The notes under the pieces are model-generated. The model was not told where the DNA came from and made no database searches. It saw only the letters and a program-made list of their open reading frames with translations. Shown one piece after another: positions 8,198 through 64,000 of a stretch of DNA of 64,000 bases. The number at the start of each line of letters is the position of its first letter. The stretch's first letter is position 1. The position numbers were made by a program, and so were the translations under genes. The DNA is from Psychroserpens burtonensis DSM 12212 (GTDB lineage: Bacteria; Bacteroidota; Bacteroidia; Flavobacteriales; Flavobacteriaceae): positions 62,001 through 126,000 of the forward strand of contig NZ_AUDE01000010.1 of the NCBI RefSeq assembly GCF_000425305.1, in the 5' to 3' direction.

Positions 8198-8316
8198 TTT
8201 TTAATTATGCTTTTTTTTAATGAGAAACTTATCCTCCTGTTGGCTATTAGATCGTTTATTAGACAAGAGAGTGACTCTTAATTTAGTTATTTACACATTA
8301 ATTGAAGTTCAAAATA

Positions 8317-8727: not shown

Positions 8728-8737
8728 TTTTTTTTAA

Positions 8738-9079
8738 TTAAATAATGTTTAATATGTTTTGTGGTGGACGACCAATCGCAGCTTTCTTACTATTGATAAC
8801 AATTGGACGTTCTATTAATTTTGGATGTCTTACCATAGCTTTAATAATTTGAGCATCTGATAACGTTATACCCTTGAAATCAGATTTCCAAATGGCTTCA
8901 TTCTTACGAACTAATTCAATGGGCTTAATCTTTAAAAGTGAAATGATATTTTTCAACGCGCTTTCGGAAATTGGCTCATCCAAATATTTTATAACTCCAA
9001 AATCTTTGCCAGAATTTTCTAAAAGGCTTAATCCTTCTCTAGATTTACTACATCTTGGGTTGTGAAGTATTGTAATCAT
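8738..9079 (-). CDS. arsC: ArsC/YffB-family reductase-like protein
   Basis: 113 residues, thioredoxin-fold ArsC/Spx family. The N-terminal HNPRCSKSREGL carries the redox/catalytic Cys10, and the C-terminal part has the conserved RPIVI segment with its arginine, as in glutaredoxin-dependent arsenate reductases. In this family many members (YffB-like) have no shown arsenate activity, and no ars operon genes (arsB, arsR) are nearby, so the arsenate role is uncertain. It lies 39 bp after prfB on the same strand and 10 bp before the next gene. Confidence 0.85.
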   Translation of the reverse strand: MITILHNPRCSKSREGLSLLENSGKDFGVIKYLDEPISESALKNIISLLKIKPIELVRKNEAIWKSDFKGITLSDAQIIKAMVRHPKLIERPIVINSKKAAIGRPPQNILNII

Positions 9080-9118
9080 ATTTGTTTCCCGAGAAAGCGA
9101 GAGTCTTATTTATTTAAA

Positions 9119-13437: not shown

Positions 13438-13439
13438 AT

Positions 13440-14459: not shown

Positions 14460-14527
14460 ATTTTTAATAACAAAATTTTAAAGTCAGTCGCTTGATTGAT
14501 TATTAAGACTAAAGTTGGCAGAAACTT

Positions 14528-15361
14528 ATGGAAAAGCACGAGGTAGATGAAATAGTAAAGACCAAAGCGAAAAAGAAGGAAATAGAAGATCATGACGATA
14601 TTCTAGTAAAACAACTTTGCGAAGGACTTGATACATACCGTAAAAATAGATTATCTACTTTTTTAAGTAGTTTTATGGCAGGCTTGGAAATAGGATTTAG
14701 CTTCTTATTGGTTGCTATTGTCTATAGCATTTTTAATGGGGAAATTAAAGATGAATACATTCCTTATTTAGCATCATTTGTATATCCTCTTGGTTTTATA
14801 TTGGTGGTTTTGGGAAAGTCAATATTGTTTACAGAACAGACCTCTTTGTTATCATTGCCAGTGATTAGTGGGAAGAAAACGGTTGGTGATTTAATGTCAT
14901 TGTGGGGCATCGTTATATTTGGTAATTTAGTAGGAGGCTATTTAATAGGAGCCTTCATTGTATGGATAGGTCCTGAATTGGGTGTCATTTCCTATCAAGG
15001 GATTGAGAACTTAGCCAATCATGTAAATCATTTTACTAGAGATGTTATTCTAGGAAGCTCTGTTTTAGCAGGATGGCTAATGGCCTTGCTGTCATGGATC
15101 ATTACTTCTACTAAAACCACGTCGGGAAAAATACTCATCATATATATGATTACGTTTATAATTGCCATGTCTGGCCTTCATCACAGTATAGTAGGTAACA
15201 TTGAGATATTCGCTGGATTTTTGGTTTCTGATAAAATAACTTTTATTGATTATCTCACCTTCCAATCCACGTCATTATTAGGTAATGCTATTGGTGGAGT
15301 TGTTTTTGTAGCTATTTTAAAATATGGCGCATTTTTAGCAAACAATACGAAAGAAGATTAA
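14528..15361 (+). CDS. Formate/nitrite transporter family channel
   Basis: 277 residues, with a charged cytoplasmic N-terminus (about 1-45) and six membrane helices. FNT-type features are visible: the repeated pore-helix breaks (GLEIGFSFLL near 52, LAGWLMALLSWI near 180) and the MSGLHHSIVGN segment with histidines in the fifth helix region, comparable to the central pore histidine region. This group (YfdC-like) conducts small monovalent anions such as formate, nitrite or related ions across the inner membrane; the substrate cannot be read from the sequence. It follows ltaE by 68 bp and may share its transcript. Confidence 0.85.
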   Translation: MEKHEVDEIVKTKAKKKEIEDHDDILVKQLCEGLDTYRKNRLSTFLSSFMAGLEIGFSFLLVAIVYSIFNGEIKDEYIPYLASFVYPLGFILVVLGKSILFTEQTSLLSLPVISGKKTVGDLMSLWGIVIFGNLVGGYLIGAFIVWIGPELGVISYQGIENLANHVNHFTRDVILGSSVLAGWLMALLSWIITSTKTTSGKILIIYMITFIIAMSGLHHSIVGNIEIFAGFLVSDKITFIDYLTFQSTSLLGNAIGGVVFVAILKYGAFLANNTKED

Positions 15362-15609
15362 AAAACTATAGGCAGTATAAAGAGAAATAATAGTTTTTCT
15401 ATTAAAATTATTTAGTCTGCAGTTTAAATGGACCTTTTCATCAAAGTTATTGATTTAACACCAATTTTTTTTGGTAAAATACTTAACCGCATTTCAGCAA
15501 TAGTTTTTCTTATTATGTAATAATTTGTATCAATTCTCAACACATAGCGACAAAACAATTAAAAGATCAATATCCTCCTTTAAAAAGTTTGAACACTCTA
15601 AGCTTGAGT

Positions 15610-15933
15610 TTACTTGAACATATCCATTCCAGGAATATTAGGCATTCCTTCTTTTGCAACAGCAGCAACCTCAGTTTCATGAACCGTCGTCGCTCGATCA
15701 ATAGCTTTGTTAATCGTAAGAATTAAGTAATCTTCTAACATATCTTTATCTTTAAGTAAGTCGTCATCAATCGTAATCGCTTTTAAAGTACGATTTGCAG
15801 TAATAGTTACTTTTAATTTTTCGTCATTACTATTCATATCAATCAAAACGGTGTGCAAACGTTCTTTTGTTTCTTCTACTTTTTTTTGAGCTTCTTTCAG
15901 TTTGCTCATCATTCCTGTCATATCTCCAAACAT
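15610..15933 (-). CDS. ybaB: YbaB/EbfC family nucleoid-associated protein
   Basis: 107 residues. The N-terminus [21 protein letters not shown] is the helical dimerisation part of the YbaB family, followed by the short beta-sheet ([17 protein letters not shown]) and a C-terminal helix. These proteins form DNA-binding dimers. In many bacteria ybaB lies next to recR or dnaX; here it stands alone. The two flanking gaps (248 and 259 bp) hold no other gene. Confidence 0.9.
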
Positions 15934-51129: not shown

Positions 51130-51414
51130 TTAAAATCCTTCAAAAACGCCCAATCCAAATAAGGCGAAATCATATTTTACAGGATCTCTAGAGTCTAGTT
51201 TTCGTAAGGCTATATCAAGTTCTAAAACTGCTTTACCATCATTTTGTTTTCGTTTGAGAAGTTTTAATTTTCTTGCAACATTCCCAGAATGTACGTCTAA
51301 AGGACATGATAATAGCGCAGGAGAGATGCGTTTCCAAATCCCAAAATCTACACCATTATTATCCTGTCTCACCATCCACCGTAAATACATGTTTAAATGT
51401 ATAATAAATGCTGC
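51130..51414 (-). pseudogene. 3' fragment of a DUF2400 (TIGR02757) gene cut by element insertion
   Basis: The minus-strand frame from 51390 to 51130 encodes MYLRWMVRQDNNGVDFGIW...LDVHSGNVARKLKLLKRKQND...DPVKYDFALFGLGV, which is the C-terminal third of the TIGR02757/DUF2400 family (usual length about 250 aa). In family members the preceding residues read roughly 'KRLN' before MYLRWM; here the frame reads HLN and runs into unrelated sequence and a stop at 51417-51415. So the family homology breaks at about 51394-51400. The recombinase gene ends just 22 bp further. Not functional as it stands. The start codon at 51390 is only an internal methionine. Confidence 0.85.
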
Positions 51415-51421
51415 TTAGTGA

Positions 51422-53203
51422 TTAATCAAATATAATCAACTCATTTTTGGTTATTTTGATTGTATCAAGATAGCCAAACTCCATCTGAACATAGTCTTTA
51501 TTTTGATTTTGTTCATCAGATTTCTTTAGTCGGTCTATTAATTCTTCAAAATGCTGTTTTCTGTAAGGGTCGCTATCCATAAAATCTTTGAATTCTTTGG
51601 GGATTGTAAACCCAGGTATTGTATTCGTTAAAGTATTTGATGTTTTTTGATAGCCAATAAGATTATATTGAATTAATTGCTGATTTGTTTTCCAAACAGA
51701 CGTTTCATTAAACCCTTTATATTTTATTACAAACCAAAACTCACCATTCTTCTCATGTGGAATATACATAACTTCAATACTTTCTATTAGTTGCTGTACT
51801 GTAGCTTTTATAGCCTCAAATCCTGAATCAATTTTAAAACCTTCTATCGCACTATTAACTCTCGTCAGTCTATTATTATCATTCTGTATTGATAATTCAG
51901 TCTTAACCTGTTCTAATGATTCCTTATACTTAAATACTTTATCTTTAGCTTCTTTGTACTTAGCTTTTAATCTAGCATCATTAGATAAATCATCCTCATC
52001 CTCAAATAAATAATTAAACGCTTTAGTTTCTAACTTTTCAGCAGATTTTAATTTCCTAATCAGCTCATTGTTCTTAAAAGTCAATGTATCAATTTCGACA
52101 GTATCTACTTCAATATTATTTAGTCGTTTCTGGAGGTTTTTGCTCAAAAATAAATGCTTGATAATAAAAGTCTCAAATCTAGGAATATTGAAACCTTTAC
52201 CACCTTTGCAGACATGTAAAGGTGCTTGTTTTCCAGAACAGATATATTGATTCCTTCTGTCTGACAATCTTCTTTTGCCTTTATACATAAATCCGCATTC
52301 CTTGCAAAAAACGAGTCCATTTAACAAATACTTATAAATTGGTTTCTTTCCTGATTTTGTCCGTTTATTCTTCTTTAGATTCTTTTGAATAGCGTTGTAT
52401 TCATTTAATGATATTATTGCAAGATGTGGCAATGAAATTTCTTCTTTATTCCAAATATGAATACCAGCATATAATTTTTTCTTTAAGATACCATGTATTG
52501 TAGAACCCCACCATAACTTATTTTTATGCTTTATTTTTATACCTGTACTGACTTCGATAGTTGTTCTATGTTTATTAAGTTTTGCAAATCTTGTTGGTAC
52601 ATTTAATTCATTTAATTTCTTTGCAATACTATAAGCTCCAATTCCATTTAACGACCATTCAAAAATATTCTTGACAATCTTAATCTCCTCAGATTCATGT
52701 ACCATTAATCCATTATCATCTTTGGTAATACCATAAGCATTAACACCATGAGTTTTGCCTTTAAGAGCGTTTCGATAAAAGGCAACTTTAACAGCATCTG
52801 AAGTTTTATCTGAATGCATTTCGTTGAAAACAGAAAGTAAATTCGCCATTGCTCTATTAGTGGTAGAGTCTAAGTCATAAAATTTACCCTCAGGATACCA
52901 TTTCGCACCAACATTCAAAATTGTGGAAACAAAATATCGCCATGTATCAGGATTACGTTCTATTCTATCTTGATGGATAGCGAAAACATGTGTGATTTTT
53001 TTTGCTTTAATATCTCCAATAAATCTATGAAATTCATCACGAGAAAATATTTCAGCTTTTCCAGATACATTAATATCTTTATATACTTCATATTTCATTT
53101 CTAATTTACCAGAAAATTCGATTCCTCGCTCTTCCTGATACTCAATACTGGTATCTATACCATCCATTTTGTCTCCTGATATTCTGCAATAAATTCCTAC
53201 CAT
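51422..53203 (-). CDS. Large serine recombinase (site-specific integrase)
   Basis: 593 residues. N-terminal resolvase catalytic domain (about 1-140) with nucleophile S9 in GIYCRISGD and the R-rich active site (HQDRIERN, SVFNEMHSDKTS). Then the recombinase domain PF07508 (about 150-270; YGITKDD, WWGSTIHGILKKKLYAG) and the zinc ribbon (FCKECGFMYKGKRR...YICSGK...HVC). A coiled coil (about 370-450) and a C-terminal beta part follow. It should catalyse integration and, with a partner, excision. It ends about 20 bp from the DUF2400 junction, which is presumably its attL. The start codon lies in the loop of an inverted repeat. Confidence 0.92.
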   Translation of the reverse strand: MVGIYCRISGDKMDGIDTSIEYQEERGIEFSGKLEMKYEVYKDINVSGKAEIFSRDEFHRFIGDIKAKKITHVFAIHQDRIERNPDTWRYFVSTILNVGAKWYPEGKFYDLDSTTNRAMANLLSVFNEMHSDKTSDAVKVAFYRNALKGKTHGVNAYGITKDDNGLMVHESEEIKIVKNIFEWSLNGIGAYSIAKKLNELNVPTRFAKLNKHRTTIEVSTGIKIKHKNKLWWGSTIHGILKKKLYAGIHIWNKEEISLPHLAIISLNEYNAIQKNLKKNKRTKSGKKPIYKYLLNGLVFCKECGFMYKGKRRLSDRRNQYICSGKQAPLHVCKGGKGFNIPRFETFIIKHLFLSKNLQKRLNNIEVDTVEIDTLTFKNNELIRKLKSAEKLETKAFNYLFEDEDDLSNDARLKAKYKEAKDKVFKYKESLEQVKTELSIQNDNNRLTRVNSAIEGFKIDSGFEAIKATVQQLIESIEVMYIPHEKNGEFWFVIKYKGFNETSVWKTNQQLIQYNLIGYQKTSNTLTNTIPGFTIPKEFKDFMDSDPYRKQHFEELIDRLKKSDEQNQNKDYVQMEFGYLDTIKITKNELIIFD

Positions 53204-53219
53204 ATAATGATTATTGCAG
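53184..53219. repeat. Inverted repeat around the recombinase start codon
   Basis: CTGCAATAA (53184-53192) and TTATTGCAG (53211-53219) are perfect complements separated by 18 bp that contain the recombinase ATG (53203). As DNA it could be a self-repression operator; as RNA it would fold the start codon into a hairpin loop. Confidence 0.6.
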
Positions 53220-53265
53220 TAAAGGTAATAATATAATTTATGTAGTTAGTATAGGCTGCATTAAA

Positions 53266-53406
53266 TTAGATAGCTACAGCGGTTAACATTCTTCCAGTTG
53301 GATACATTTTTTTAGCTATTATTAAAGCATTGTTTGTACTTGTAGCTGTAACCACAATTTCAGTTCGTTTAGAGTTAAATATTGCTTTGACTTTAAAATT
53401 TCTCAT
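53266..53406 (-). CDS. 46-aa protein of the element
   Basis: ATG 53406 to TAA 53268-53266; product starts MRNFKVKAIFNSKRTEIVV and ends MLTAVAI. Its first bases overlap the end of the upstream 57-aa gene. The pattern of a short beta hairpin, then 'A-x-T-x-x-N-A-L-x-I-A-K-x-x-Y-P' (TSTNNALIIAKKMYPTG), is shared by tiny proteins common on plasmids and integrative elements. I cannot name a function. Upstream of the recombinase gene (62 bp) on the same strand, so probably in its transcript. Confidence 0.6.
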   Translation of the reverse strand: MRNFKVKAIFNSKRTEIVVTATSTNNALIIAKKMYPTGRMLTAVAI

Positions 53407-53566
53407 CAATTAATTTTTTAATTTTTTCTCTGTAATTATTTATTTGAATTCTTAATTCAAGAATTTCTTTTTCATTTTGAAGGTTTTGTAATTTATTAGG
53501 GTCTTTTTCTAATGAAATTGCATGTTTAGTTAATTCTATCTTATTTTTTATTTCAATATTATTCAT
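53393..53566 (-). CDS. 57-aa coiled-coil protein of the element
   Basis: ATG 53566 to TAA 53395-53393; product MNNIEIKNKIELTKHAIS... ending KKLIDEKF. It is entirely helical and charged with heptads (LQNLQNEKEILELRIQIN), a likely coiled coil. It overlaps the 46-aa gene by 14 bp (shifted frame), an arrangement usual for translational coupling. No homologue recognised. Confidence 0.6.
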   Translation of the reverse strand: MNNIEIKNKIELTKHAISLEKDPNKLQNLQNEKEILELRIQINNYREKIKKLIDEKF

Positions 53567-53590
53567 AGATGGGATTGGTTTTAAACTAAA

Positions 53591-53681
53591 CCACCTAAAA
53601 GACGCTTAAAACTTCGATTTTAAACAATTGCATGTTAGCTCTAACTTGTGACAATTTGTTGTAAATTATATCTTTAGGTGG
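53591..53681. repeat. Inverted repeat flanking a non-coding stretch
   Basis: CCACCTAAAAGA (53591-53602) is nearly complementary to TCTTTAGGTGG (53671-53681), with one extra A. The 68 bp between them are AT-rich and hold no gene. It lies in the 140-bp gap between the 57-aa and 82-aa genes and could be an RNA structure, an operator pair or part of an origin; nothing decides. Confidence 0.4.
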
Positions 53682-53708
53682 GAATGTGGTTTTATTACAC
53701 TTGGTCAG

Positions 53709-53957
53709 TTACGTGAAAGTCGGAGGATACTGCGCTGCGTTTATAAGACGCTCATTTGAGTATATATGTTCACACACAATTAATTCAGATAATTGATTAT
53801 TCTTATATAACCACATCAATTCTTGTATTAATGAATCTTCTGAAGTGTCAGCTGATTCTTCGTGCTTTGTCGTTACATAATTGATTAGTAATTGTCTCGT
53901 TAAAGGAGTGTAAATCAGTTCAATTTCATCCATTGTTTCTTCATTGTAATTTTTCAT
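53709..53957 (-). CDS. 82-aa acidic protein, unknown
   Basis: Product begins MKNYNEETMDEIELIYTPL and ends AAQYPPTFT; strongly acidic (EESADTSEDS) with a predicted helix (LIQELMWLYKNNQLSELIV). Begins 4 bp after the HTH-HUH gene stop on the same strand, so the two are surely co-transcribed. Acidic small proteins beside DNA-processing enzymes can be regulators or DNA mimics, but nothing here proves that. Confidence 0.65.
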   Translation of the reverse strand: MKNYNEETMDEIELIYTPLTRQLLINYVTTKHEESADTSEDSLIQELMWLYKNNQLSELIVCEHIYSNERLINAAQYPPTFT

Positions 53958-53961
53958 AATT

Positions 53962-54528
53962 TTATTTATTTAAGTATCTTACTGCTTGAGATTTCTTCAT
54001 CATTTCTTCTACCTGAAGTCTGTAAGCATTTTTATTAAGGTATTTGCATAGTATTTTATCTACCTCGTTTGTTAATTCATTTTTACTTGCATTTGATAAA
54101 ATGTGAACATGATTAAGTCCTCTCTTAGTCTTCTCAATGCAATAGTAAAATGAGTTATTATTGAATTTAATCATTACCTCATTTATTAATTGTTGGTGAT
54201 AATCTTTTGAATACTTTTCAGCCATACACCATGTAATAAAAGTTTTCCAATCATAGTTGCTAAGAGTAAGAGTTCTAGGTTTGTATTTAGGCATAAATTC
54301 GTCTACGAGGGTATAATGTATCTTCCATTTCCTGTTCTTCTTTACAAGTAGTGATGGAACATCTTCATATTTTTTCTTCAGTTTATTTATTCTATATCTA
54401 AAGGTTCTTTCACTTATTCCTGTGATATTAATAATGTCATTATATGAGTAATATTTTCTTTGCTTTCTATTCTCATAAAAATCATCTAATTGTTGGTTAA
54501 AAGTATTTTTATCTGTTTTCTGTTTCAT
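53962..54528 (-). CDS. Compact HTH plus HUH-motif (Rep-like) protein
   Basis: 188 residues. Residues 26-52 (KYYSYNDIINITGISERTFRYRIN, read in pieces) form a helix-turn-helix. The C-terminal 100 residues carry the three marks of a rolling-circle replication or relaxase nuclease: motif 1 TLTLSN (about 86-91), motif 2 NHVHIL with the HUH pair H140/H142, and motif 3 AVRYLNK with Y185 and K188 (YxxK) at the very C-terminus. Typical phage and plasmid Rep proteins continue past motif 3; this one ends there. It may nick an origin on the element, or regulate. The motif reading is mine and needs a structure check. Confidence 0.55.
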   Translation of the reverse strand: MKQKTDKNTFNQQLDDFYENRKQRKYYSYNDIINITGISERTFRYRINKLKKKYEDVPSLLVKKNRKWKIHYTLVDEFMPKYKPRTLTLSNYDWKTFITWCMAEKYSKDYHQQLINEVMIKFNNNSFYYCIEKTKRGLNHVHILSNASKNELTNEVDKILCKYLNKNAYRLQVEEMMKKSQAVRYLNK

Positions 54529-54984
54529 GGTTATATTTTGTCTATTATCAGGATTAAGAAGTTTTGGTCTATCTTACTTCCTTTAATATAAATATGCACC
54601 TGCACTAGTAAAAACCTTCAGTAACCAATATTTTTTACGGATTGTTTTATAACCAACTGAATTTCAATAATATAAATTTTTGATTTAGTTGAAAATAATT
54701 TTAAACTGACTAATTTTAGTGTAGAAAACTCTAATTTAGATTTGCACGTCAAATACTAAAAAACTTGATTTAAGGTATAGTTGCTTTGTAAAAAGACTTT
54801 AATACAATATTACCTCAACTTATTCCAAAACTCTTTTGACAATAACTCACCATGAATAATTAAGATTGTATTTTACAGTAGGTTTTAACGTGTTGTAATC
54901 TTTTTTACCTAAACGTTAACTAATAAATTCGTAACGATAACTAATCATATTTGATTACTTTAGATTAATGAGTTAGATTTATAT
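54529..54984. other. Divergent intergenic region holding the control sites
   Basis: 456 bp between the HTH-HUH gene and the LytTR gene, very AT-rich. No gene was found. The only striking structure is the LytTR-type direct repeat pair at 54913-54945. No clear TAnnTTTG box was found near the LytTR gene (nearest TACTTTAG near 54955 and TAGATTTA near 54973). Confidence 0.5.
54913..54945 (+). promoter_or_regulatory. Direct repeats with LytTR-box geometry
   Basis: ACGTTAACTAAT (54913-54924) and ACGATAACTAAT (54934-54945): 12-bp repeats with one mismatch, start-to-start distance 21 bp. LytTR regulators bind pairs of about 9-bp repeats separated by 12-13 bp, so both lie on one helix face. They lie 40-72 bp before the LytTR gene, which suggests autoregulation. 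Confidence 0.55.
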
Positions 54985-55740
54985 ATGATAACAGCTATAA
55001 TTATTGATGATGAACAAAATGCAAGAGAATTTCTTCAAAAACTCATCAAACGTTATTTTGATAAAAAAATACTAGTACTTGATACTTGTGACTCTGTAAA
55101 AACAGGAACTGAGGCAATTAATCAGTTGCATCCAGATATCGTTTTTTTAGATATTCAAATGCCTAATGAAAATGGCTTTGAGTTATTTAAAAAATTAGAC
55201 ACTATAACTTTTGAAGTTGTATTTACTACCGCATATAAGAATTATGCAATTGATGCCATAAAACACGCTGCTTTCGATTACCTACTTAAACCTATCAATC
55301 ATATTGATTTATTAAGTACTGTAAGACGATTTGAAGCTCATAGAGACACTTTAAAACGTGAAGAACGCATATCTTTGCTATTAGAAAATTTGAGTTCAGA
55401 AAACGATACATTTAATAAAATAGCATTACCTACTCAAAATGGTTATGAGCTACAAAGGTTAAATCATATTATGTATTGTCAGTCCGATAGTAATTATTGT
55501 AAAATTAAATGTATTGATGGTAAAGAATTTCATTTAGCTAAAACTTTAAAGTTTGTTGAAAACCTTATAAACAATAGATTGTTTTTCAGAATCCATAAAT
55601 CGTATTTAGTGAATTTAAATTTCGTTAAAAAATTTGATAAGATTGATGACCTATATGTTACGCTAATTAATGGCGAACAGCTTCCTGTATCTGTAAGAAA
55701 AAAAGAATCCTTTTTAAATGTCATTTTACATAAAAACTAA
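54985..55740 (+). CDS. LytTR-family response regulator
   Basis: 251 residues. Receiver domain (about 1-120) with phospho-acceptor D56 in VFLDIQMP, acidic pair IDDEQNA at residues 7-9, T in FTTAY and K in LLKPI. LytTR DNA-binding domain (about 145-250; LNHIMYCQSDSNYCKI, FRIHKSYLVNLNFV, LPVSVRKK). The last 23 bp overlap the start of the kinase gene, so the two are translationally coupled partners. The receiver-LytTR order fits regulators paired with Y_Y_Y kinases in Bacteroidota. It is probably autoregulated through the direct repeats upstream. Confidence 0.92.
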   Translation: MITAIIIDDEQNAREFLQKLIKRYFDKKILVLDTCDSVKTGTEAINQLHPDIVFLDIQMPNENGFELFKKLDTITFEVVFTTAYKNYAIDAIKHAAFDYLLKPINHIDLLSTVRRFEAHRDTLKREERISLLLENLSSENDTFNKIALPTQNGYELQRLNHIMYCQSDSNYCKIKCIDGKEFHLAKTLKFVENLINNRLFFRIHKSYLVNLNFVKKFDKIDDLYVTLINGEQLPVSVRKKESFLNVILHKN

Positions 55741-58700
55741 AGTCTTAATACTGTTGTTGTTTTTGAGTGCTTTCATTGGCTATACTCAAATACATCCTTC
55801 AAAACAAATTTCCACAACCAACGGTTTGCCTAACAATCAAGTTGAAGCAATATTTAAAGATTCTCGTGGTATTATTTGGGTTGGAACTCAAAATGGATTA
55901 TCTAAAATAGAGAATGGCAACATAACTAATTTTTATGTTGAAGACGGTTTGTGTCATAATGCCGTATGGGATATTGTAGAAGACTCAAAAGGAAATCTGT
56001 GGTTTGGCACTTATGGTGGTGGTATAGCGAAGTATGATGGTAAACGTTTTACAATAATTAAAAGTAATGAAACACTTAATTCAAGCCATGTCAGGAAACT
56101 TTTTATTTATAAAAACAAATTACTAGTTGGAACTGAAAAGGGATTATATATCATAGACCTCAACACTAACAACTTTCAAGAATTTGAAACCAACCATGAT
56201 AGATTTCAGATAATGGATTTTATTCTATATAAAGATGAGGTTTATATTGCTGTTTATACTTCAGGGATTTTCAGTTTATCATCAGATTTTAAAAAGCTTA
56301 AAAAGGTAAAAGAAGTTGATGAAAAAAAGTCGCCAGTATTTTCTCTATATCTTGACGGTAATAGACTTTACGTTGGTAATGATGCAAATGGTATTAACAA
56401 TAGATTAATTTCAAAAACTGGAGCTGTAGACTGCTATGATATTGAAAATTTCATTAATAATAAACCACCAAATAAAACTTTTGGTAAATCTATTATTTGG
56501 GATTACGCCAAAGATAATGAAGCCAACCTTTATTGCTCAGGTTGGGGAGTTCATTCTAATAATGGAGGTATTTATAAGATTGAAAACAATGAGTTTACAG
56601 ATATGTCCTCTGCTTTTGGTGTTGATAGCTATAAGGTAAGAGGTTTATATTTTGATAAACAATTCAATAGACTATATGTTGGAACACAAGACAAGGGATT
56701 GTATATAGTGGATTTGAATCAAAACATTGTCTTTAACAAAACTGAAAACCATATTATTTCTGATTTTCAAATTATCAAAGATAATTTAGTATTGCTGCAT
56801 AATCATGGGCTTACCATTCAGAATGACAAAGACACAATCACTATAAACTCGAATAATTTTTATAAAGTACTCAAATCATCTTATAAACAACAATCAAAAT
56901 CCTATTTTCAGGTTTTGAGTATTGAAGTCTCTGAAAAAAATTTAGTCTATTACAAGTTAATAATTAGAAATAACAGTATTTGGGTTAGCACTAATTATGG
57001 TTTATTTGAAGTAAATGGAGACCTAAAAAACATTTCATACTATGCTACACGACCAAAAGTATTTGCATTTAAAAATCGAAATGATTTAATCAGTCCAATA
57101 CAATACGGATATGTTAGTATTTTCACTGATATTGAAAATAATCCTATTTATTATGGCGCACCAGAAAAAAACAAATTTTCACCCAATAATTCATCTGATA
57201 TTAACAATCCTCACCATATAACAAATTTAGCAAAGTCTAACAAAAGATTGTATTTGTCCTCTCCTGTTAATGGGTTATTTTCTTTTGATGATACAAAATT
57301 TACATCATTAAATAATTCAGGAGAGTTTACTGAAAAAGAGATAAATCACTTAACTATTTCAAAAGAATCTAATAAGTTAATAGCTTCATCAAATTCTGGG
57401 AAAATTTATATAGCAGATATAACTACTGATTTTGAGCTGCTCAAAACCATTAATAGGTCTAACTATATAGGCAACTCAATTTTGTTTCTTGAAACCTATA
57501 AAAACACGATTTTGGTAGGTACTGAAAAGGGTTTAAACGTTTTTAGAAATGAAAAATTTCAATTCATAGATACAGAACAAGGTTTGGATATGGTTAATTT
57601 TTCTTCAGCTAAAGTTTTGGATAGCACATTATATGTTGGAATTACAAATGGTTATTATAAATTAGATTTGGAAGCTGTTATATATCAAGACACAAAGCCT
57701 GTTACATTACAGCTTTCAGATGTGTTGGTTAATCATGCCAACCATCTTACAGAAGATAATATCTGGTTTAAGCAAAAAAGCAACAAACTAAAATTACCAT
57801 ACAACCAAAACACGTTAGACCTTTATTTTAAAAGCTCTAACCACCCATATCCTAAAAAATTATTATATAGTTACCAAGTACAAAACCTTGATAGTACTTG
57901 GAGTAATTTTTCCAACTCTACCAATATTAGTTTGCCTTATTTACCGAGTGGTGCTTTCGATGTTCATGTGAAAACTAAAGATTTAAACTCTGGAGTTGTT
58001 TCTAATTCAAAATTAACAGGCATCATTATTCTACCACCTTTTTGGCAAACGTGGTGGTTTATTGCTTTAATAGTTGCTTTTTTGGGTCTTATAATGTTTC
58101 TAGCCTATAAGAAGCGTATTGCTATTATTAAAAATAGAGAGCATCAAAAAGCGAAAATCCAAAAGCGATTGATAGAAACACAACTAGAAGCTTTACAGTC
58201 TCAAATGAACCCTCATTTCACATTTAATGCGTTAAACTCAATTCAAAATTATATTATAGATAACGATGTTGATAATGCTTTAATGTACTTGTCAGAGTTT
58301 GCAAAACTTATCAGAAAAACGCTTGATAATTCCTCTCAACCCTTAATATATTTAGAAGAAGAAATAGACTATTTGAAATCTTATGTGGCATTAGAGAACA
58401 TGCGATTTAATAATAAAGTTGAGGTGTCTATTAATTTTGATAACATAGATATACACGATATTGAACTACCACCAATGCTTATTCAACCATTTGTTGAGAA
58501 TGCTTTTGTACATGCGTTTGATAAAACTATTGTTAATCCAATTTTGCAAATTACATTTTCAATTGAAAACCAATTTTTAATTTGCACCATTGCAGATAAT
58601 GGTATTGGCATAAGCAAAACAGAATCTGGACAGTTACATGAATCAAAAGGCTTAAAACTCGTTACAGAACGATTAGATTTATTAAAGACCTCTACACAAA

Positions 58701-58783
58701 TATCTTATGATATTGCTTCTAAAAAAGGAAATGGGACAACTATCACACTTAAAATTGCTTCCAAGAATCTAACGATTAATTAA
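55718..58783 (+). CDS. Propeller/Y_Y_Y sensor histidine kinase
   Basis: 1021 residues. Signal sequence (about 1-20, ending FIGYTQ), then two seven-bladed propeller repeats (about 30-660) of the two-component regulator type: IFKDSRGIIWVGTQNGL, VEDSKGNLWFGTYGG, later VGTEKGLNVF. A Y_Y_Y domain (about 665-770; NTLDLYFKSS, YSYQVQNLDSTW), one membrane helix (about 772-795) and a His_kinase domain (PF06580) with phospho-acceptor H833 in NPHFTFNALNSIQ plus a HATPase core (ADNGIGIS) complete it. These kinases usually sense glycans or other envelope ligands in Bacteroidota, but no SusCD or glycosidase genes are adjacent. Partner is the overlapping LytTR regulator. Confidence 0.93.
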   Translation: MSFYIKTKVLILLLFLSAFIGYTQIHPSKQISTTNGLPNNQVEAIFKDSRGIIWVGTQNGLSKIENGNITNFYVEDGLCHNAVWDIVEDSKGNLWFGTYGGGIAKYDGKRFTIIKSNETLNSSHVRKLFIYKNKLLVGTEKGLYIIDLNTNNFQEFETNHDRFQIMDFILYKDEVYIAVYTSGIFSLSSDFKKLKKVKEVDEKKSPVFSLYLDGNRLYVGNDANGINNRLISKTGAVDCYDIENFINNKPPNKTFGKSIIWDYAKDNEANLYCSGWGVHSNNGGIYKIENNEFTDMSSAFGVDSYKVRGLYFDKQFNRLYVGTQDKGLYIVDLNQNIVFNKTENHIISDFQIIKDNLVLLHNHGLTIQNDKDTITINSNNFYKVLKSSYKQQSKSYFQVLSIEVSEKNLVYYKLIIRNNSIWVSTNYGLFEVNGDLKNISYYATRPKVFAFKNRNDLISPIQYGYVSIFTDIENNPIYYGAPEKNKFSPNNSSDINNPHHITNLAKSNKRLYLSSPVNGLFSFDDTKFTSLNNSGEFTEKEINHLTISKESNKLIASSNSGKIYIADITTDFELLKTINRSNYIGNSILFLETYKNTILVGTEKGLNVFRNEKFQFIDTEQGLDMVNFSSAKVLDSTLYVGITNGYYKLDLEAVIYQDTKPVTLQLSDVLVNHANHLTEDNIWFKQKSNKLKLPYNQNTLDLYFKSSNHPYPKKLLYSYQVQNLDSTWSNFSNSTNISLPYLPSGAFDVHVKTKDLNSGVVSNSKLTGIIILPPFWQTWWFIALIVAFLGLIMFLAYKKRIAIIKNREHQKAKIQKRLIETQLEALQSQMNPHFTFNALNSIQNYIIDNDVDNALMYLSEFAKLIRKTLDNSSQPLIYLEEEIDYLKSYVALENMRFNNKVEVSINFDNIDIHDIELPPMLIQPFVENAFVHAFDKTIVNPILQITFSIENQFLICTIADNGIGISKTESGQLHESKGLKLVTERLDLLKTSTQISYDIASKKGNGTTITLKIASKNLTIN

Positions 58784-58801
58784 AAAAAATAGTCGATTAC
58801 T
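58773..58801 (+). promoter_or_regulatory. Second, weaker 21-bp direct repeat pair
   Basis: CGATTAAT (58773-58780) and CGATTACT (58794-58801) are also 21 bp apart and fit the pattern CGWTWAMT shared with the repeats at 54914 and 54935. The first overlaps the kinase stop codon. It lies 53 bp upstream of the -7 box at 58854. Short repeats like these can arise by chance. Confidence 0.3.
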
Positions 58802-58825
58802 TTTTATTTAGTTACACAAACTAAT

Positions 58826-58861
58826 TGTCATTAATAATTATGACATTAAGATATATGTTTG
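58826..58861 (+). promoter_or_regulatory. Promoter of the lipoprotein run with adjacent palindrome
   Basis: TATGTTTG (58854-58861) is a -7 box; an imperfect palindrome TGTCAT...ATGACA (58826-58845) sits directly upstream, where a regulator would bind. TTG at 58825 is a possible -33 but the 26-bp gap is long. It indicates a transcript start ahead of the gene at 58889. Confidence 0.45.
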
Positions 58862-58888
58862 ATTATTATAAACCATAATAATCAAACA

Positions 58889-59464
58889 ATGAAACGTATA
58901 ATTTATTTTATCCTTTTAGCATTACTATTTAATTGCTCTTCTGATGATGATTCTAATTCAAACAATAGTGAAAACTTTATCTCTATAACTAGAGATGGAG
59001 AAACCTTTAGTGAATACAATCTAGCTTACTCGGTATTTGGAGCTAACAATTGTAACGATTCTAATGTAACAATGGACATTACAACACAAATTGCTTTCAT
59101 AGAAAATTCCGAATTTTCATTTTCTTTAGCTATTGCACATCCGACTAATAAATCCGACTTTGATAATGCTAGTTTATCTGCAAGCCAAGTCAACATTGAA
59201 GCTAGTGATGATGGTATTGGTTTTATAGACTGCGTAAATAATTTTGATTTTATTACCAATTATAATGACAATAGTAGGTATGTGTTTATTGATGATACAG
59301 TAAGTAACATAAACATCATTGAAAACATCAATTTAATCAATGAAACCTCAACGAATGCAACATACGGAATTAGAGGTAATTATCAGATAACTTATACTGA
59401 TGGGTCTGATTATAATATTACTATTACTGGAAGTTACTTAATCCATGTTGATACTTTAAAATAA
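58889..59464 (+). CDS. Small lipoprotein, Asn/Asp/Ser-rich
   Basis: 191 residues from ATG 58889 (MKRIIYFILLALLFNCSSDDD); the frame upstream to TTG 58859 includes part of the promoter box and is not used. Lipidated cysteine at 16, followed by SSDDDSN, a pattern that in Bacteroidota often marks surface-exposed lipoproteins (an acidic stretch after the cysteine). The mature part is beta-rich (ENFISITRDGETFSEYN, YGIRGNYQITYTDGSDYN). No family recognised. First of six consecutive same-strand genes with gaps of 5 to 90 bp. Confidence 0.75.
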   Translation: MKRIIYFILLALLFNCSSDDDSNSNNSENFISITRDGETFSEYNLAYSVFGANNCNDSNVTMDITTQIAFIENSEFSFSLAIAHPTNKSDFDNASLSASQVNIEASDDGIGFIDCVNNFDFITNYNDNSRYVFIDDTVSNINIIENINLINETSTNATYGIRGNYQITYTDGSDYNITITGSYLIHVDTLK

Positions 59465-59469
59465 CAAAC

Positions 59470-59913
59470 ATGACCTATAATATCAAAACCAATTTACATC
59501 GTGTACTAGTATTAATGATAATGTTTACCGCTTTGGCGTGTGATAAAAATCAAAATACTTCTTCTGATATTGAAAATTTTAACAATTTCTTTCATTCATT
59601 TTCAATTAATGAAAACTTTCAAAAAGAAAGAGTTGTTTTCCCATTTATGGAGTTAGAATATAATGGAGAAGATTATGACACCATCTATGTTTCATATAAT
59701 GAATGGAAGCATGATTCATTTTATTATGATGGGCAAACTTGTAGTGAAGCTATTCCTGTAATTTATAACAATTTTGAAAGGATGATGGATGATTCTTCAA
59801 ATGAAAGAGTATTTGCTTGGCAAGGCATAGAGAATGGAATTCAAGTTCTATACTTTTTTAAAAGGACTGGCAATAAATGGTTTTTAACTAAAATGGAGAA
59901 TAATTCAAACTAA
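59470..59913 (+). CDS. DUF4348-like lipoprotein
   Basis: 147 residues with lipobox cysteine near residue 24 (FTALACDKN). The sequence FNNFFHSFSINENFQKERVVFP with a following FPFMELEY resembles DUF4348 proteins of Bacteroidota. Starts 5 bp after the preceding lipoprotein gene. It is the first of a pair (with the 59926 gene) that share the opening pattern 'INLHRVLVLMIMFTALAC', so the two signal peptides are clearly related. Confidence 0.7.
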   Translation: MTYNIKTNLHRVLVLMIMFTALACDKNQNTSSDIENFNNFFHSFSINENFQKERVVFPFMELEYNGEDYDTIYVSYNEWKHDSFYYDGQTCSEAIPVIYNNFERMMDDSSNERVFAWQGIENGIQVLYFFKRTGNKWFLTKMENNSN

Positions 59914-59925
59914 AAAAGAGCAAAT

Positions 59926-60342
59926 ATGAAGTTTATTTTCAAAATCAATTTACCTCATATACTAATGTTAATCATATTGTTAACGGCCTTTACGTGTAAA
60001 GAAAAAGACCAAAGAAGTAATGATTCAGAAATAAACACCACTTCAACCAATCATCTATCTAAAAATGGTAAACGTATTCTAAAAGTTAGTCAGTTAAGAG
60101 GTTTATTACTGGGAAAATACTGGATTGAGGTTGAAGAAATACTAGGCAAAGCAGATGAAAGATATACAGGTAGTAACAATGAGTCTCTAATATATTTCTA
60201 TTCTGCGATAGACGATTTTGATAACGAAATTAGACATATGAATGTTTTTATAGTTAAAAATTATGTAAAAGAAGTATGGACATGTAAACCAGGACAAGAC
60301 ATACAGATTAATGGTATGGTGACTATGACAACACCAAAATAA
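59926..60342 (+). CDS. Small lipoprotein with BamE/SmpA-like segment
   Basis: 138 residues; lipobox cysteine near residue 24 (LTAFTCKEK). The core SQLRGLLLGKYWIEVEEILGKAD resembles the helical start of SmpA/BamE-like folds (a 'G-x-s-x-x-E-V-x-x-i-L-G-x-P' pattern), which is a common small lipoprotein fold. Its signal peptide resembles that of the preceding gene. 12 bp after the 59470 gene. Confidence 0.65.
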   Translation: MKFIFKINLPHILMLIILLTAFTCKEKDQRSNDSEINTTSTNHLSKNGKRILKVSQLRGLLLGKYWIEVEEILGKADERYTGSNNESLIYFYSAIDDFDNEIRHMNVFIVKNYVKEVWTCKPGQDIQINGMVTMTTPK

Positions 60343-60362
60343 CAGCTATTATGTTGAATCAA

Positions 60363-62711
60363 ATGAATAAAACTTACAACCTCGTATTGAACATCAATAA
60401 GGTAATCCCTTTAATATTTCTATTTATTGTTTCATTATCAGTTCAGAACTTAAGTGCCCAAAACTTTAAAAAAGTTTTTAAGAACATAGAAAAAGATAAG
60501 GTCGAAAAAGCAACTGAAGCATTTAAAAAAATTAGTTCTTCTAAAGAGTATACAGCTTTAGATATAATTAAGACTGAACTCGCAACCGTTTTGATTAGAA
60601 ACTCAAAATCATCAAATGATTATAACTGCTATGAGGCTTTGAAAACATATAAGCAAATTCAAATTTCAAAAAAAAACGAAACTGAAATAACTGAATTTCT
60701 AAAAAAATATAATTTGACCCTTACATCAATTGAAGATAACGTCTATAAAAATATTCTTGGTGAGGCAAAAGAGCTGGACACTGAAGCTTCATATGAAAAG
60801 GCTATTGCATTGTGCGATTCTTGTTATTTCTTTAAAGAAGCTAAATCCTTAATGGCAAATGCAGCTTTTAAAGAAGTCCAACAAAAAAATGATATACAAA
60901 GCTATATTTATTTCACAACCACCTACAAAAATTCAGAATACTATGAGGAGGCATATAATAAACTGACTGAACTAGAGTTTTATAAGGCAAAATCAAAAAA
61001 TTCAGTAGAAGGTTTAAATTCTTTTATTGAAAAATATGATTCCAAGAACGAATATGTTTTAGATGCCATTTCAATAAAAGACTCTCTTGTTTATTTCAGA
61101 ACCCCTAAAAAATACAAAGATTATAAATTATTTGTTCAAACTAATAAAGCTTCAAAATATTATAGTATTGCCCAAAGCCAACTTCCCGACATACTTTTTG
61201 ATGAAGCCAAAAAAGAAAATAACATTAGTTTGTTTGACTTATTTTTAAAAGAATTTCCAAAAGAGGATAGAGTTACTCAAATAAAATCTGATTTTATTCC
61301 AAATTTATTATTTGAACAGGGTATAGAAAATCAAAATACGGATTTTTTAGAAAGATTTATAAGTGACTATCCCAATGAAACTAAAAAAATTGATTTGGCT
61401 AGAAACAATTTAGAAACAATATATACCAATTCATTACTTAATAGCTACGCACCTCTGAAATTTGAAAGCTTTAAAGAAAAATTCCCAAGTAGTGAATCGA
61501 TTAAACAAATTGAACTAAAATACTCAATTATTTTAAAAGAAAGTGATTGGAATAAAAACGACTTAAATGGTAGGGTAAAAAATATCATAACTAAAGGTTA
61601 CTATTATGAAATTTTACCTAAACGTACGCAAAGTACTACGATAAACAAATTTAAAATTTTTGCCACTGGTGGTTTTATTATTGATGACAGAGAATTACAA
61701 ATAGATTTGGAAGAAAGTTATAATGAAAACGGAAATTATGAAAAAGTAATCCTTAATGGAGGGTCTAGAGATAATTTAGAAAAATTAATGAAGAATATTA
61801 GACCATATAAATTAAGTGTAGATACTGAAACAGCATCAATCCATAAATTTGGAGAACTAAAACATTTCGGAGAATATTTAGATGACGATATGTACATTAG
61901 TGGTTCTCGTTATGGGGAGGTTCTTTTCAAATACAACTCTTTCCAAAAGCTTACGGAAGTAATCCATAAAAATGAAAAGCATAGTATTTCTTATGAGGAA
62001 TCTCAAAAAATGATAAGTATAAGACGCACTAGTTTATCTTATGATAATAATAACCATACAATCAAATACTTGTGGAGTAAAAATCGATTATCTAAGAAGA
62101 CTATTTATGACAATCAAAATGCTTTGGTTTTTAATTATAGTATTCAGAATAATGGAAATCAAATAATTCTAGAAATCACGAATGAATATAACCAAATTGA
62201 TAAACGAATTATTTCCACAAAAAATAATAAGGGTAATATAACAAATGAAGTAATTGAGAACTTCAATCGAACATCAGGAAGAAACGTAATAACCGCCTTT
62301 ACAAAAAAGTATTTTACCTATAGTAAACATAATAAGCTTTTAACGGTCAAGACTCAAAGCTATTCAAGAAAAAACAGCAAGTTTAGTGCCTCAATAAATG
62401 CATTTTACGGTAATCCGATTAAATATGATAACGGAGAATTTTATGTTGGCCCTATAGAAAGTATAACTAATATTATTAGAGATAAAAATAATATGGTGAC
62501 AGCAGTAAATACTGTTGAGTTAAATAAAAAAAATTACCAACATAGCAACGAATACAGACATGGTGTTTTCGGTGTTTGGGGAAAAAGGTGGGAGTATGTA
62601 TATGATGAAAACAATAATTGGATTCAAAGAATAGAATATGAGGTTTTAGATGGAAATGAAAGCTTAAAAAATAAAAATTACATTATTAAGAGAGATATTA
62701 CTTACTATTAA
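60363..62711 (+). CDS. Large secreted protein, helical repeats plus RHS-like end
   Basis: 782 residues from ATG 60363 (MNKTYNLVLNINKV); ATG 60351 would add four residues and is equally possible. Signal peptide ends about residue 33 (NLSAQN). The N-terminal half (about 35-390) is helical with repeated units such as FIEKYDSKNEYVLDAIS and FLKEFPKEDRVTQIK, like TPR/tol-pal-type helical repeats. The C-terminal half has beta hairpin repeats reminiscent of YD/RHS-type or toxin_WG-like strands (KHNKLLTVKTQSYS, YVYDENNNWIQRIEYE). No catalytic motif recognised. Next gene is 21 bp away. Confidence 0.7.
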   Translation: MNKTYNLVLNINKVIPLIFLFIVSLSVQNLSAQNFKKVFKNIEKDKVEKATEAFKKISSSKEYTALDIIKTELATVLIRNSKSSNDYNCYEALKTYKQIQISKKNETEITEFLKKYNLTLTSIEDNVYKNILGEAKELDTEASYEKAIALCDSCYFFKEAKSLMANAAFKEVQQKNDIQSYIYFTTTYKNSEYYEEAYNKLTELEFYKAKSKNSVEGLNSFIEKYDSKNEYVLDAISIKDSLVYFRTPKKYKDYKLFVQTNKASKYYSIAQSQLPDILFDEAKKENNISLFDLFLKEFPKEDRVTQIKSDFIPNLLFEQGIENQNTDFLERFISDYPNETKKIDLARNNLETIYTNSLLNSYAPLKFESFKEKFPSSESIKQIELKYSIILKESDWNKNDLNGRVKNIITKGYYYEILPKRTQSTTINKFKIFATGGFIIDDRELQIDLEESYNENGNYEKVILNGGSRDNLEKLMKNIRPYKLSVDTETASIHKFGELKHFGEYLDDDMYISGSRYGEVLFKYNSFQKLTEVIHKNEKHSISYEESQKMISIRRTSLSYDNNNHTIKYLWSKNRLSKKTIYDNQNALVFNYSIQNNGNQIILEITNEYNQIDKRIISTKNNKGNITNEVIENFNRTSGRNVITAFTKKYFTYSKHNKLLTVKTQSYSRKNSKFSASINAFYGNPIKYDNGEFYVGPIESITNIIRDKNNMVTAVNTVELNKKNYQHSNEYRHGVFGVWGKRWEYVYDENNNWIQRIEYEVLDGNESLKNKNYIIKRDITYY

Positions 62712-62732
62712 CTGAATCTAAACTAATTCAAT

Positions 62733-63470
62733 ATGAAAAAATTAATCATTTTATTTTTATTTATAATATGCCTATTCTCATGTGAAAATGAAAATAAAGA
62801 TTTTAAAGTTGGGACTTTTGTTTATTTAATGGATATAAATGAGAAAATATTATACACTAGCCCTGATTATAATTCTGACCAGATAGAAACTATTCTGAAA
62901 CCCGAAGATTTTGTTTATATCCATGGGGTTGAGATAGTGGCTTTAACAGGAAAAGATACTGAATCTGAAGGACAATGGCTTCATGTTAATTTTTATGACA
63001 CAGGTTACCAAAATAAAGTAATAAAAGAAGAAGGTTATATAACTTCTAATGGATTGAGAAAAATTAGCATTAATAAAAATTTACATTTTGATGCTCTGGA
63101 AGGATTTTATCTAGATATTAAAAACAATCATATATTACACTTATGGAATAAAGATGAATATAATATTTTTCAACCTCATGATGGCTTTATGTTTACGATT
63201 AGAGGTTGTGGAAAGGAAGATGATAGAGAGATAGAAGGGTCTGCATCATTTTCTAATGGAAAACTAGTTTTATCAAACGGCATGAACATGGAATTGGATA
63301 TTAAAGAAATGAATATATTATCTTATTCAGAAATAAATAATCCTTTAGCTCCAGAATGCAATTCATCTTCCTCATCTGATGACAATGTGATATTGTTCTA
63401 TCCTATTGTATTATCGAGCAATTTAGCTTTAATTAATGAAGATTCTCAAAACTCGAATGAAACTAAATAA
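62733..63470 (+). CDS. Lipoprotein with SH3-like segment
   Basis: 245 residues; lipobox cysteine at residue 17 (CLFSCENEN). The first part (FKVGTFVYLMDINEKILYTSPDYNSDQIETILKPEDFVYI) reads like a bacterial SH3 domain that could bind peptidoglycan or peptide ligands. The second half ends in a Ser/Asp-rich tail (CNSSSSSDDN). 21 bp after the large secreted protein gene. No enzyme motif. Confidence 0.7.
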   Translation: MKKLIILFLFIICLFSCENENKDFKVGTFVYLMDINEKILYTSPDYNSDQIETILKPEDFVYIHGVEIVALTGKDTESEGQWLHVNFYDTGYQNKVIKEEGYITSNGLRKISINKNLHFDALEGFYLDIKNNHILHLWNKDEYNIFQPHDGFMFTIRGCGKEDDREIEGSASFSNGKLVLSNGMNMELDIKEMNILSYSEINNPLAPECNSSSSSDDNVILFYPIVLSSNLALINEDSQNSNETK

Positions 63471-63581
63471 GATAATTCAAATTATACTCCACAAGACTTA
63501 TCAATTAAAAGTTGGTGTTTCTAAATGTTTTGATGCTAATTTAATTGATTATAAATATTGAAGTTATTAATACCTAGTTTT

Positions 63582-63995
63582 ATGAATACTCATTTATTTT
63601 TATTCCTATTTATTACAACTATTACGGTTATTAATGCACAAAAAATACAATCCAATAATTACAATACTTCGGGTTTTGTGAAAAGTGATGGTACTATTGA
63701 GGACAGAAATTATAACACAATTGGTTATTTTAAGAGTGATGGTACAATACAAGATGAAAATTATAAAACCATTGGCTATATAAAAAATGATGGCACAATT
63801 TCCAATAAAAATTATACCACTTTAGGCAACGTCAAACCAGACGGCACAGTACAAGGCGAAAATCACAAAATATTAGGTTATATAAAAGAAGATGGTACTG
63901 TTCAAAATAAAAATCATCATACAATTGGTCATGTTAACAACATAAAAAAGGAATGGGCTGCTGCCTTTTATTTCTTTTTTGATTTTAGTCTTTAA
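63582..63995 (+). CDS. Secreted five-repeat beta protein
   Basis: 137 residues from ATG 63582 (MNTHLFLFLFITTITVINAQ); TTG 63558 is in frame but lies ahead of the signal peptide. After the signal come five and a half tandem repeats of 17 residues with the pattern NYxTIGYxKxDGTIxxx (NYNTIGYFKSDGTIQDE, NYKTIGYIKNDGTISNK). Such fivefold repeats are known as 'beta-flower' proteins in Bacteroidota. Function unknown. Last complete gene before the window edge. Confidence 0.8.
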   Translation: MNTHLFLFLFITTITVINAQKIQSNNYNTSGFVKSDGTIEDRNYNTIGYFKSDGTIQDENYKTIGYIKNDGTISNKNYTTLGNVKPDGTVQGENHKILGYIKEDGTVQNKNHHTIGHVNNIKKEWAAAFYFFFDFSL

Positions 63996-64000
63996 ACAAC

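What the first reader, a model, noticed from the sequence alone, without database searches (positions are those of the whole stretch)
51130..64000. Serine-recombinase element inserted inside a DUF2400 gene
The sequence shows a 3' fragment of a TIGR02757/DUF2400 gene (51130-51390) whose family homology stops at about 51395, and a large serine recombinase ending about 20 bp further. The first part of the gene is not present to the right in the window. Together this means an element of at least 12.6 kb has integrated into a conserved gene. Other serine integrases use genes such as comK or spoIVCA; I do not know of DUF2400 being described as a target. The cargo (below) is unusual in that it has no phage or tra genes in the visible part.
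Basis: partly seen in the sequence, partly recalled or inferred. Interest (0 to 1): 0.75.

Follow-up and report, generated by a model that had tools for sequence, protein, structure and literature searches.

The report
Mobile element replacing the gene it breaks
A mobile DNA element cuts a conserved bacterial gene in two and carries its own complete copy of that gene, altered just where the element cuts, which suggests a way for such elements to enter conserved genes without costing their host the gene.

Summary
The insertion is real. The genome continues right of the window: the missing first part of DUF2400 (PF09674/TIGR02757) lies 14.45 kb away, so a 14,453-bp serine-integrase element splits the gene at one codon. 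Just inside its far end, outside the window, lies a complete DUF2400 gene. The same anatomy is complete in 4 genomes: the window's, one congener, Lutibacter flavus and another genome of its genus. Cargo differs; the last two carry BREX phage-defence genes. In the window's genus the host fragments group with the genus while the carried copies do not. Crossover is at a palindromic AT, and insertions occur in both orientations (3 complete and 1 remnant forward; 1 complete and 1 partial inverted). In 5 of 5 carried or carried-type copies the attachment stretch is, within 5 bp, the most deviant 50 bp of the gene, lower than in any of 89 native genes. Best reading: a break-and-replace element whose replacement gene is altered at its own integrase's target. 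Function, expression and immunity are inferred, not measured. Ten searches of an open-access paper library found no description of DUF2400 as a target or of such an element. Known parts, new variant.

The parts
51130..51390 (-). C-terminal fragment of the host's DUF2400 gene (86 aa, starts at the core)
   Evidence: PF09674 profile 145-224, E 1.7e-37; groups with the host genus when joined to the N fragment
51389..51390 (.). crossover dinucleotide AT (palindromic), in the Met codon of KRIN-M-(Y/F)LRW
   Evidence: junction comparison with the other end and an uninterrupted relative
51391..51414 (.). integrase-side attP arm
   Evidence: same arm type in the other carriers
51422..53203 (-). large serine integrase (593 aa)
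   Evidence: PF00239, PF07508, PF13408; phrog_95 integrase, E 7e-73
53709..53957 (-). 82-aa ORF, no family found
53962..54528 (-). 188-aa ORF with a weak Rep-like match (below the curated cut-off)
   Evidence: PF23343, E 0.0063, 17.2 bits against 27.8; no PHROGs or NCBIfam match
54985..55740 (+). cargo: LytTR response regulator
   Evidence: PF00072, PF04397
55718..58783 (+). cargo: propeller-type sensor histidine kinase
   Evidence: PF07494, PF07495, PF06580
58859..63995 (+). cargo: six ORFs, including a DUF4348 protein (59470-59913) and a beta-flower protein (63558-63995). The element goes on beyond the window: small serine recombinase, complete DUF2400 copy, second core and N fragment, at L004:13719-14348, 14499-15263, 15343-15344 and 15345-15872 (L004 position + 50499 = window-equivalent)

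Best explanation
A site-specific integrative element. Its large serine integrase joins an element site (attP) to an attB inside the conserved DUF2400 gene, at the Met codon of KRIN-M-(F/Y)LRW, exchanging at a 2-bp AT core (deduced from sequence). Integration splits the host gene (shown). The element carries a complete DUF2400 gene near one end, so an intact reading frame remains whichever way round the element lies (anatomy shown; functional replacement and expression inferred). Because AT is palindromic, the core gives no direction, and the element is found in both orientations (both observed; that the core is the cause follows from published serine-integrase work). The carried copy departs from native genes most strongly at the attB stretch, which should keep the integrase from recombining into its own replacement gene (deviation shown; immunity inferred). 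Cargo varies.
For: Complete anatomy in 4 genomes. The full copy lies between the two junctions in 4 of 4 and is turned round together with the integrase in G780. Cores and arms. Host fragments of G000 and G402 group with their genus, carried copies do not. G374's only intact DUF2400 is of the carried type and sits at the native locus beside a truncated native gene ending in an element arm. dN/dS 0.09-0.13 in the 3 pairs of carried copies that could be computed. Att stretch: z -4.9 to -10.0 in the 5 copies, lowest of 89 natives -4.0; rank 3-9 of 713 windows. 5 of 5 copies score below all 89 natives at the 30-bp site.
Against: No activity, expression or complementation data. No strict promoter motif upstream of 6 of 6 copies examined. 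Host fragments show no clear loss of constraint. Only two lineages of carried copies, so the att deviation may be two events; the test limited to invariant columns is weak (p 0.015-0.34), the deviation extends some codons upstream of the site, and two natives also dip there (z -4.0 and -3.4). The window's own copy is the least altered (Tyr kept after Met; 33.6 against a native minimum of 35.1). The label test on the tree is not significant for carried copies as one group (74 of 500 shuffles as low). DUF2400 is absent from 29 of 397 family genomes, so it is not indispensable. Bacteroidales phages carry DUF2400 without such an arrangement.
Confidence: 0.75

Rival explanations
1. The DUF2400 copy is ordinary cargo used by the element itself, for example in DNA processing, as seems so in phages; that its homologue is the target gene is incidental.
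For: 15 of 50,697 phage records match DUF2400; in the 5 inspected no integrase is annotated within about 6 kb either side, and in 4 of them DNA-metabolism genes surround it (the fifth has only hypothetical proteins).
Against: The copy lies near the end of the element in 4 of 4 complete cases, the target is the same gene, and the copies deviate most at the integrase's own site. G374 keeps only the carried-type gene.
Confidence: 0.12
2. Plain disruption of an expendable gene, as described for other serine-integrase elements; the copy and its altered site are chance.
For: 29 of 397 family genomes and 117 of 296 phylum genomes lack a match; G798 has only a decayed fragment; review statement that serine-recombinase IMEs disrupt dispensable genes (PMC5704250).
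Against: A complete copy accompanies the insertion in 4 of 4 complete cases, and the copies are under purifying selection.
Confidence: 0.07
3. Programmed excision element that restores DUF2400 in some growth state, like fdxN or gerE elements.
For: Weak similarity of the integrase to XisF (81.3 bits, far below the 375 cut-off); host fragments still look constrained.
Against: A full copy is present in any state; carriers are rare (2 of 23 genus genomes) and cargo differs.
Confidence: 0.03
4. Duplication of the host's own gene followed by insertion into one copy.
For: Two homologues lie next to each other.
Against: In G000 and G402 the full copy groups outside the host genus, lies inside the junctions, and in G780 has turned round with the element.
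Confidence: 0.02

Closest known systems
Serine-recombinase IMEs in internal gene sites (e.g. rumA of streptococci) and phage A118 in comK
   Same: Site-specific insertion inside a protein gene with a 2-bp core (PMC5704250 section 2.1 part 1; PMC3556126 passages)
   Different: In the passages seen these disrupt the gene without bringing a copy; A118's native core GG is asymmetric, here AT is palindromic
Elements that rebuild one end of their target (tRNA islands, tyrosine-integrase IMEs)
   Same: Target function kept after insertion (the Islander paper PMC4383910 seen in a search listing only)
   Different: They restore one end through the att repeat; here a whole second gene is carried and the native gene stays broken
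A118 att sites mutated to symmetric cores
   Same: Recombination in both orientations (PMC3556126 passages)
   Different: Laboratory mutants; here the palindromic core is natural
Engineered home-and-rescue designs
   Same: Insert into a gene plus a carried rescue copy (PMC7968924, abstract and outline only); analogy only
   Different: Nuclease homing in an animal, designed; no relation by descent
DUF2400-bearing Bacteroidales phages (LoVEphage, PDS1 and others)
   Same: Mobile DNA carrying a DUF2400 gene
   Different: No annotated integrase beside it in the 5 stretches read; 27-45% identity to the carried copy

Membership tests
Large serine integrase element | Resolvase, Recombinase and Zn-ribbon domains in one protein | tested here: met
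   Window integrase and G780 integrase
Large serine integrase element | Short identical core in attL and attR, unlike half-sites | tested here: met
   Only AT shared in G000 and L. flavus; longer runs ending in AT shared in G402 and G780, which do not contradict it
Large serine integrase element | Uninterrupted site in relatives | tested here: met
   G045 and G787 at the same neighbours; 20 of 23 genus genomes with one intact gene
Large serine integrase element | Integrase activity, excision and circular form | not testable with these tools
   Needs an assay or reads
ICE or IME | Conjugation or relaxase genes | tested here: inconclusive
   None recognised by Pfam in the window element's ORFs; a weak sub-threshold Rep-like match in one 188-aa ORF. 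The other elements were scanned only in part
Prophage | Phage structural genes | tested here: not met
   Of 10 proteins given to PHROGs (4 cargo proteins of the window element left out) only the two recombinases matched; no structural domain by Pfam
Gene-end-restoring element | Target gene made whole across one junction | tested here: not met
   Neither junction of the 4 complete elements makes the native gene whole. G267 may be such a case and is left open
DUF2400 / TIGR02757 (carried copy) | Full-length match over the curated cut-off | tested here: met
   227 bits against 139.2; both fragments fall short with 114.6 and 105.1

The most novel reading that the evidence does not exclude
A natural break-and-replace strategy: an integrative element enters a conserved protein gene in either orientation thanks to a palindromic core, and is tolerated because it carries a complete replacement allele selected to lose its own integrase's target. 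It has moved between genera with different cargo, BREX defence included, and when the element decays the host can be left with the foreign allele as its only DUF2400 (G374).
Probability: 0.6. Interest if true: 0.82.

Novelty: new variant of a known kind. Interest (0 to 1): 0.74.

Why it matters
In the literature seen, integrative elements either disrupt expendable genes or rebuild one end of their target. A whole replacement gene with an altered attachment stretch would be a third solution, one that frees the element from orientation and opens conserved protein genes as targets. It would give a route by which core genes are swapped between genera, and a natural serine integrase with a palindromic core. 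The central claims can be tested with a two-plasmid recombination assay.

Tried and rejected
Simple disruption with no copy: dropped. Local duplication of the host gene: rejected. Phage: PHROGs gave only the recombinases among 10 proteins, and one pattern-based scan of viral contigs with the integrase confirmed no relative.

Genomes with unusual DUF2400 matches that I do not count as this element: G124, G194, G165 and G809 (matches at contig ends), G269 (also listed as G783) and G335 (interrupted frames), G266 (a fragment elsewhere, starting past the core), G381 (two full copies in a fragmented assembly), G1018 and G1009 (split elsewhere). G267 has an intact native-type gene, a C fragment with an attP-like arm, a metal-efflux cargo and no integrase match; I could not decide between recombination of an N fragment with a carried copy and a 3'-end-restoring element. 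Whether G374's copy is chimeric at its far C terminus is undecided. G292 gave no integrase match, but its assembly is 84% complete and the contig ends inside the copy.

dN/dS on untrimmed N fragments was inflated by element codons and is replaced, which shows no clear relaxation. A strict promoter search found nothing. No solved-structure sequence matched DUF2400 at E <= 1, and permissive Pfam matches gave no function. Dyad symmetry of the att sites was judged by eye, not scored.

Literature: 10 searches in an open-access PMC library showed no description of DUF2400 as an integration target, nor of a carried full-length, att-altered replacement; listings were capped, and subscription papers and preprints are not held.
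Full report
What is there. The window is G000:C6:62001-126000 of a 3.98-Mb, 68-contig genome. A DUF2400 search of this genome gives three matches on C6, all on the minus strand: a C-terminal fragment (C6:113145-113423, the finding), an N-terminal fragment (C6:127832-128272, profile 1-148) and a complete gene (C6:127013-127687, profile 1-224). The complete gene lies between the fragments; its ORF starts about 80 bp inside the N-side core. The two cores are 14,453 bp apart. In gene sense the order is: N fragment, core, intact DUF2400 copy, small serine recombinase, cargo, an ORF with a weak Rep-like match, large serine integrase, core, C fragment. The carried copy passes the TIGR02757 cut-off, the fragments do not.

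Exact site. In gene sense the N side reads ...CGAATCAATAT then element, and the C side element ...AACATGTATTTACGG; the uninterrupted gene of G045, a congener, reads CGTATCAATATGTTTTTACGC. In G000 and L. flavus the host and element sequences share only AT at the switch, inside the Met codon of KRIN-M-(Y/F)LRW; in G402 and G780 a longer run ending in AT is shared, so there the core is compatible but not fixed. The element arms running into AT resemble one another on both sides in the four complete elements, so the sites look dyad-symmetric (by eye); single arms of the same kind remain in G292, G267, G798 and G374. AT is its own reverse complement, so the core has no direction.

Recurrence. In the window's genus 23 of 23 genomes have DUF2400; 2 of 23 (G000, G402) have the complete split anatomy, 1 (G267) an intact gene plus a C fragment, 20 a single match. 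In the genus of L. flavus 34 of 38 genomes have a match; 2 of 38 (L. flavus, G780) have the complete anatomy, 1 (G798) has only a decayed C fragment, 2 (G783, G809) are broken otherwise, 29 have one full gene. Element lengths are 14,453 (G000), 9,490 (G402), 39,118 (L. flavus) and 34,361 bp (G780). In the family sample 368 of 397 genomes have DUF2400 and, besides G000, eight have two matches; of these I judge G292, G374 and G267 related to this element and five not. L. flavus's genus is in the window's family, because G269 (same family) and G783 (that genus) show identical coordinates and scores. In a phylum sample 179 of 296 genomes have DUF2400; besides G000 only G1018 and G1009 have two matches, split elsewhere. 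The alignment of three integrases matched 1 of 395 genomes of the order at E <= 1e-100, the window itself. A pattern-based scan of the GTDB contig collection with the integrase confirmed one locus, L. flavus DSM 27993. In 11 chosen genomes the integrase matched in 3: G000, G402 and L. flavus (G780 was found later and has one, 55% identical to the window's).

Orientation. Forward (integrase beside the C fragment): G000, G402, L. flavus, plus the remnant in G374. Inverted (integrase beside the N fragment, copy beside the C fragment and reading the other way): G780, complete, and G292, where the contig ends inside the copy but the copy-side arm abuts the C fragment. L. flavus and G780 carry BREX genes 87-98% identical over five genes, with integrases 59.5% identical, yet lie in opposite orientations. 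Symmetric core dinucleotides are reported to allow both orientations in A118 integrase mutants (PMC3556126, passages); PMC3783163 (passages) describes synapsis in either alignment with efficient exchange only in the parallel one for ordinary cores. I cannot tell integration in either direction from later inversion in place.

Origin of the carried copy. A maximum-likelihood tree of 98 proteins holds 89 intact genes, 4 carried copies, G374's intact gene and 4 natives made by joining each complete carrier's two fragments. The G000 and G402 natives fall within their genus. The carried copies of G000, L. flavus and G780 form a clade (99/91) next to one gene from the L. flavus genus (99/92); that of G402 pairs with G374's gene (100/99), away from the six other genomes of G374's genus. 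The bootstrap had not settled, and taken as one group the carried copies are not significantly clustered (2 changes; 74 of 500 shuffles as low), as expected for two lineages. The 89 genes are those whose loci were returned and were full length: 33 from the family sample (30 best plus 3), 21 from the window's genus, 29 from the L. flavus genus, 6 from G374's genus. Carried copies show dN/dS of 0.09, 0.13 and 0.13 in three pairs; the G402-G374 pair is saturated. The N fragments of the four carriers show dN/dS of 0.035-0.143 against 0.058-0.128 for intact controls, so there is no clear decay: the insertions are recent, or the gene is at times restored.

Altered target in the carried copy. After the core Met 89 of 89 native genes have Phe (67) or Tyr (22); the copies have Met (G402, G374), Trp (L. 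flavus, G780) or Tyr (G000). The Ala five residues before Met is invariant in 89 of 89 natives and is Ser or Cys in 5 of 5 copies. A 30-bp site score built from natives gives 33.6 (G000), 20.8 (L. flavus), 21.0 (G780), 6.9 (G402) and 6.5 (G374) against a native minimum of 35.1 and median of 47.0. Scoring every 50-bp window along the gene, the att window has z of -4.9, -6.1, -6.3, -8.4 and -10.0 in the same order; it ranks 3, 9, 3, 7 and 5 of 713 windows, and the lowest window starts 4-5 bp away in each case. Natives go no lower than -4.0 there (div_L005; next -3.4), and natives as divergent overall can be normal at the site (mean z -1.78 with att z -1.6; mean -1.68 with att 0.0). At protein level the excess is 15.7-27.3 against a native maximum of 10.4, with ranks 2, 12, 20, 5 and 4 of 239 windows; the deviation also reaches some codons upstream. 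The test limited to fully invariant columns is weaker: 1-2 of 10 inside against 0-3 of 69 outside, p 0.015-0.34. Only two lineages are involved, and the window's own copy is the least altered. I read this as selection against recombination into the replacement gene; faster drift of this stretch in carried copies cannot be excluded without an assay.

Aftermath. In G374 the native gene is shortened and runs into an element arm at the core; no integrase or separate C fragment was found, and the only intact DUF2400 is of the carried type, at the native locus between the same neighbours. In G798 only a decayed C fragment beside an element arm remains, between aroQ and miaA, with no other DUF2400 match.

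Cargo and mobility. The window's element carries a LytTR response regulator with a propeller-type histidine kinase, a DUF4348 protein, a beta-flower protein and ORFs without a family. PADLOC gave only weak matches to the response regulator. G402 carries a Fib_succ_major protein and a repeat protein that I call BspA-like from recall. In L. flavus BrxA, BrxB, BrxC, PglZ and BrxL match PADLOC; in G780 BrxC and BrxL were scanned and match, and the other three by identity to L. flavus; the methylase was not looked for. Each of the four complete elements has a small serine recombinase towards the copy's end, of diverged kinds. No relaxase, tra or phage structural gene was recognised in the window element's proteins scanned; how it moves between cells is unknown.

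Controls and literature. DUF2400 genes occur in 15 phage records and 5 plasmid records; in the 5 phage stretches read no integrase is annotated nearby, so carriage alone does not prove replacement. A review states that serine-recombinase IMEs disrupt dispensable genes, whereas tyrosine-integrase IMEs keep the target whole through the repeat (PMC5704250, section 2.1 part 1 and passages). A survey of thousands of serine integrases groups them by the genes they disrupt; the 12 passages seen mention no carried replacement (PMC10083194). Searches for DUF2400 and TIGR02757 found 1 and 0 papers, the one (PMC8477406) seen only in the listing.

Verdict. The parts are known kinds; the combination of a whole, att-altered replacement gene with an orientation-neutral core is, as far as these searches go, undescribed.

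Noticed in passing
L055 (G267:C3:104000-122000), 4353-14626: In a congener the same locus holds a 10-kb run of ORFs that look like metal-efflux genes between an intact DUF2400 and a second C-terminal fragment that starts at the same core and is 99% identical to the intact gene's end; no integrase was found.
   Followed up: partly
L070-L072 and L140-L141 (L. flavus and G780): BREX defence genes travel in these elements, 87-98% identical between two genomes whose integrases are only 59.5% identical.
   Followed up: partly
window 53962-54528 and L100:4607-5272: ORFs beside the integrase with a His-x-His-like stretch seen by eye; one has a weak sub-threshold Rep match, the other none. Possible replication or mobilisation gene.
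   Followed up: partly
phage records MW660583.1, PQ571265.1, OR296437.1, OP172640.1, MN929097.1: DUF2400 recurs in Bacteroidales phages, in 4 of these 5 among DNA-metabolism genes and in two annotated N-glycosylase/DNA lysase (as written in the records), which hints at a DNA-related role for this uncharacterised family.
   Followed up: partly
L004:13719-14348, L072:3547-4269, L100:8030-8656, L140:6222-6848: A second, small serine recombinase sits towards the copy's end in 4 of 4 complete elements, of mutually diverged kinds; role unknown.
   Followed up: partly
L057 (G266), 7765-7968 and 8935-9549: A DUF2400 C-terminal fragment on another contig than the intact gene, starting past the core, with a small serine recombinase about 1 kb off.
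   Followed up: no
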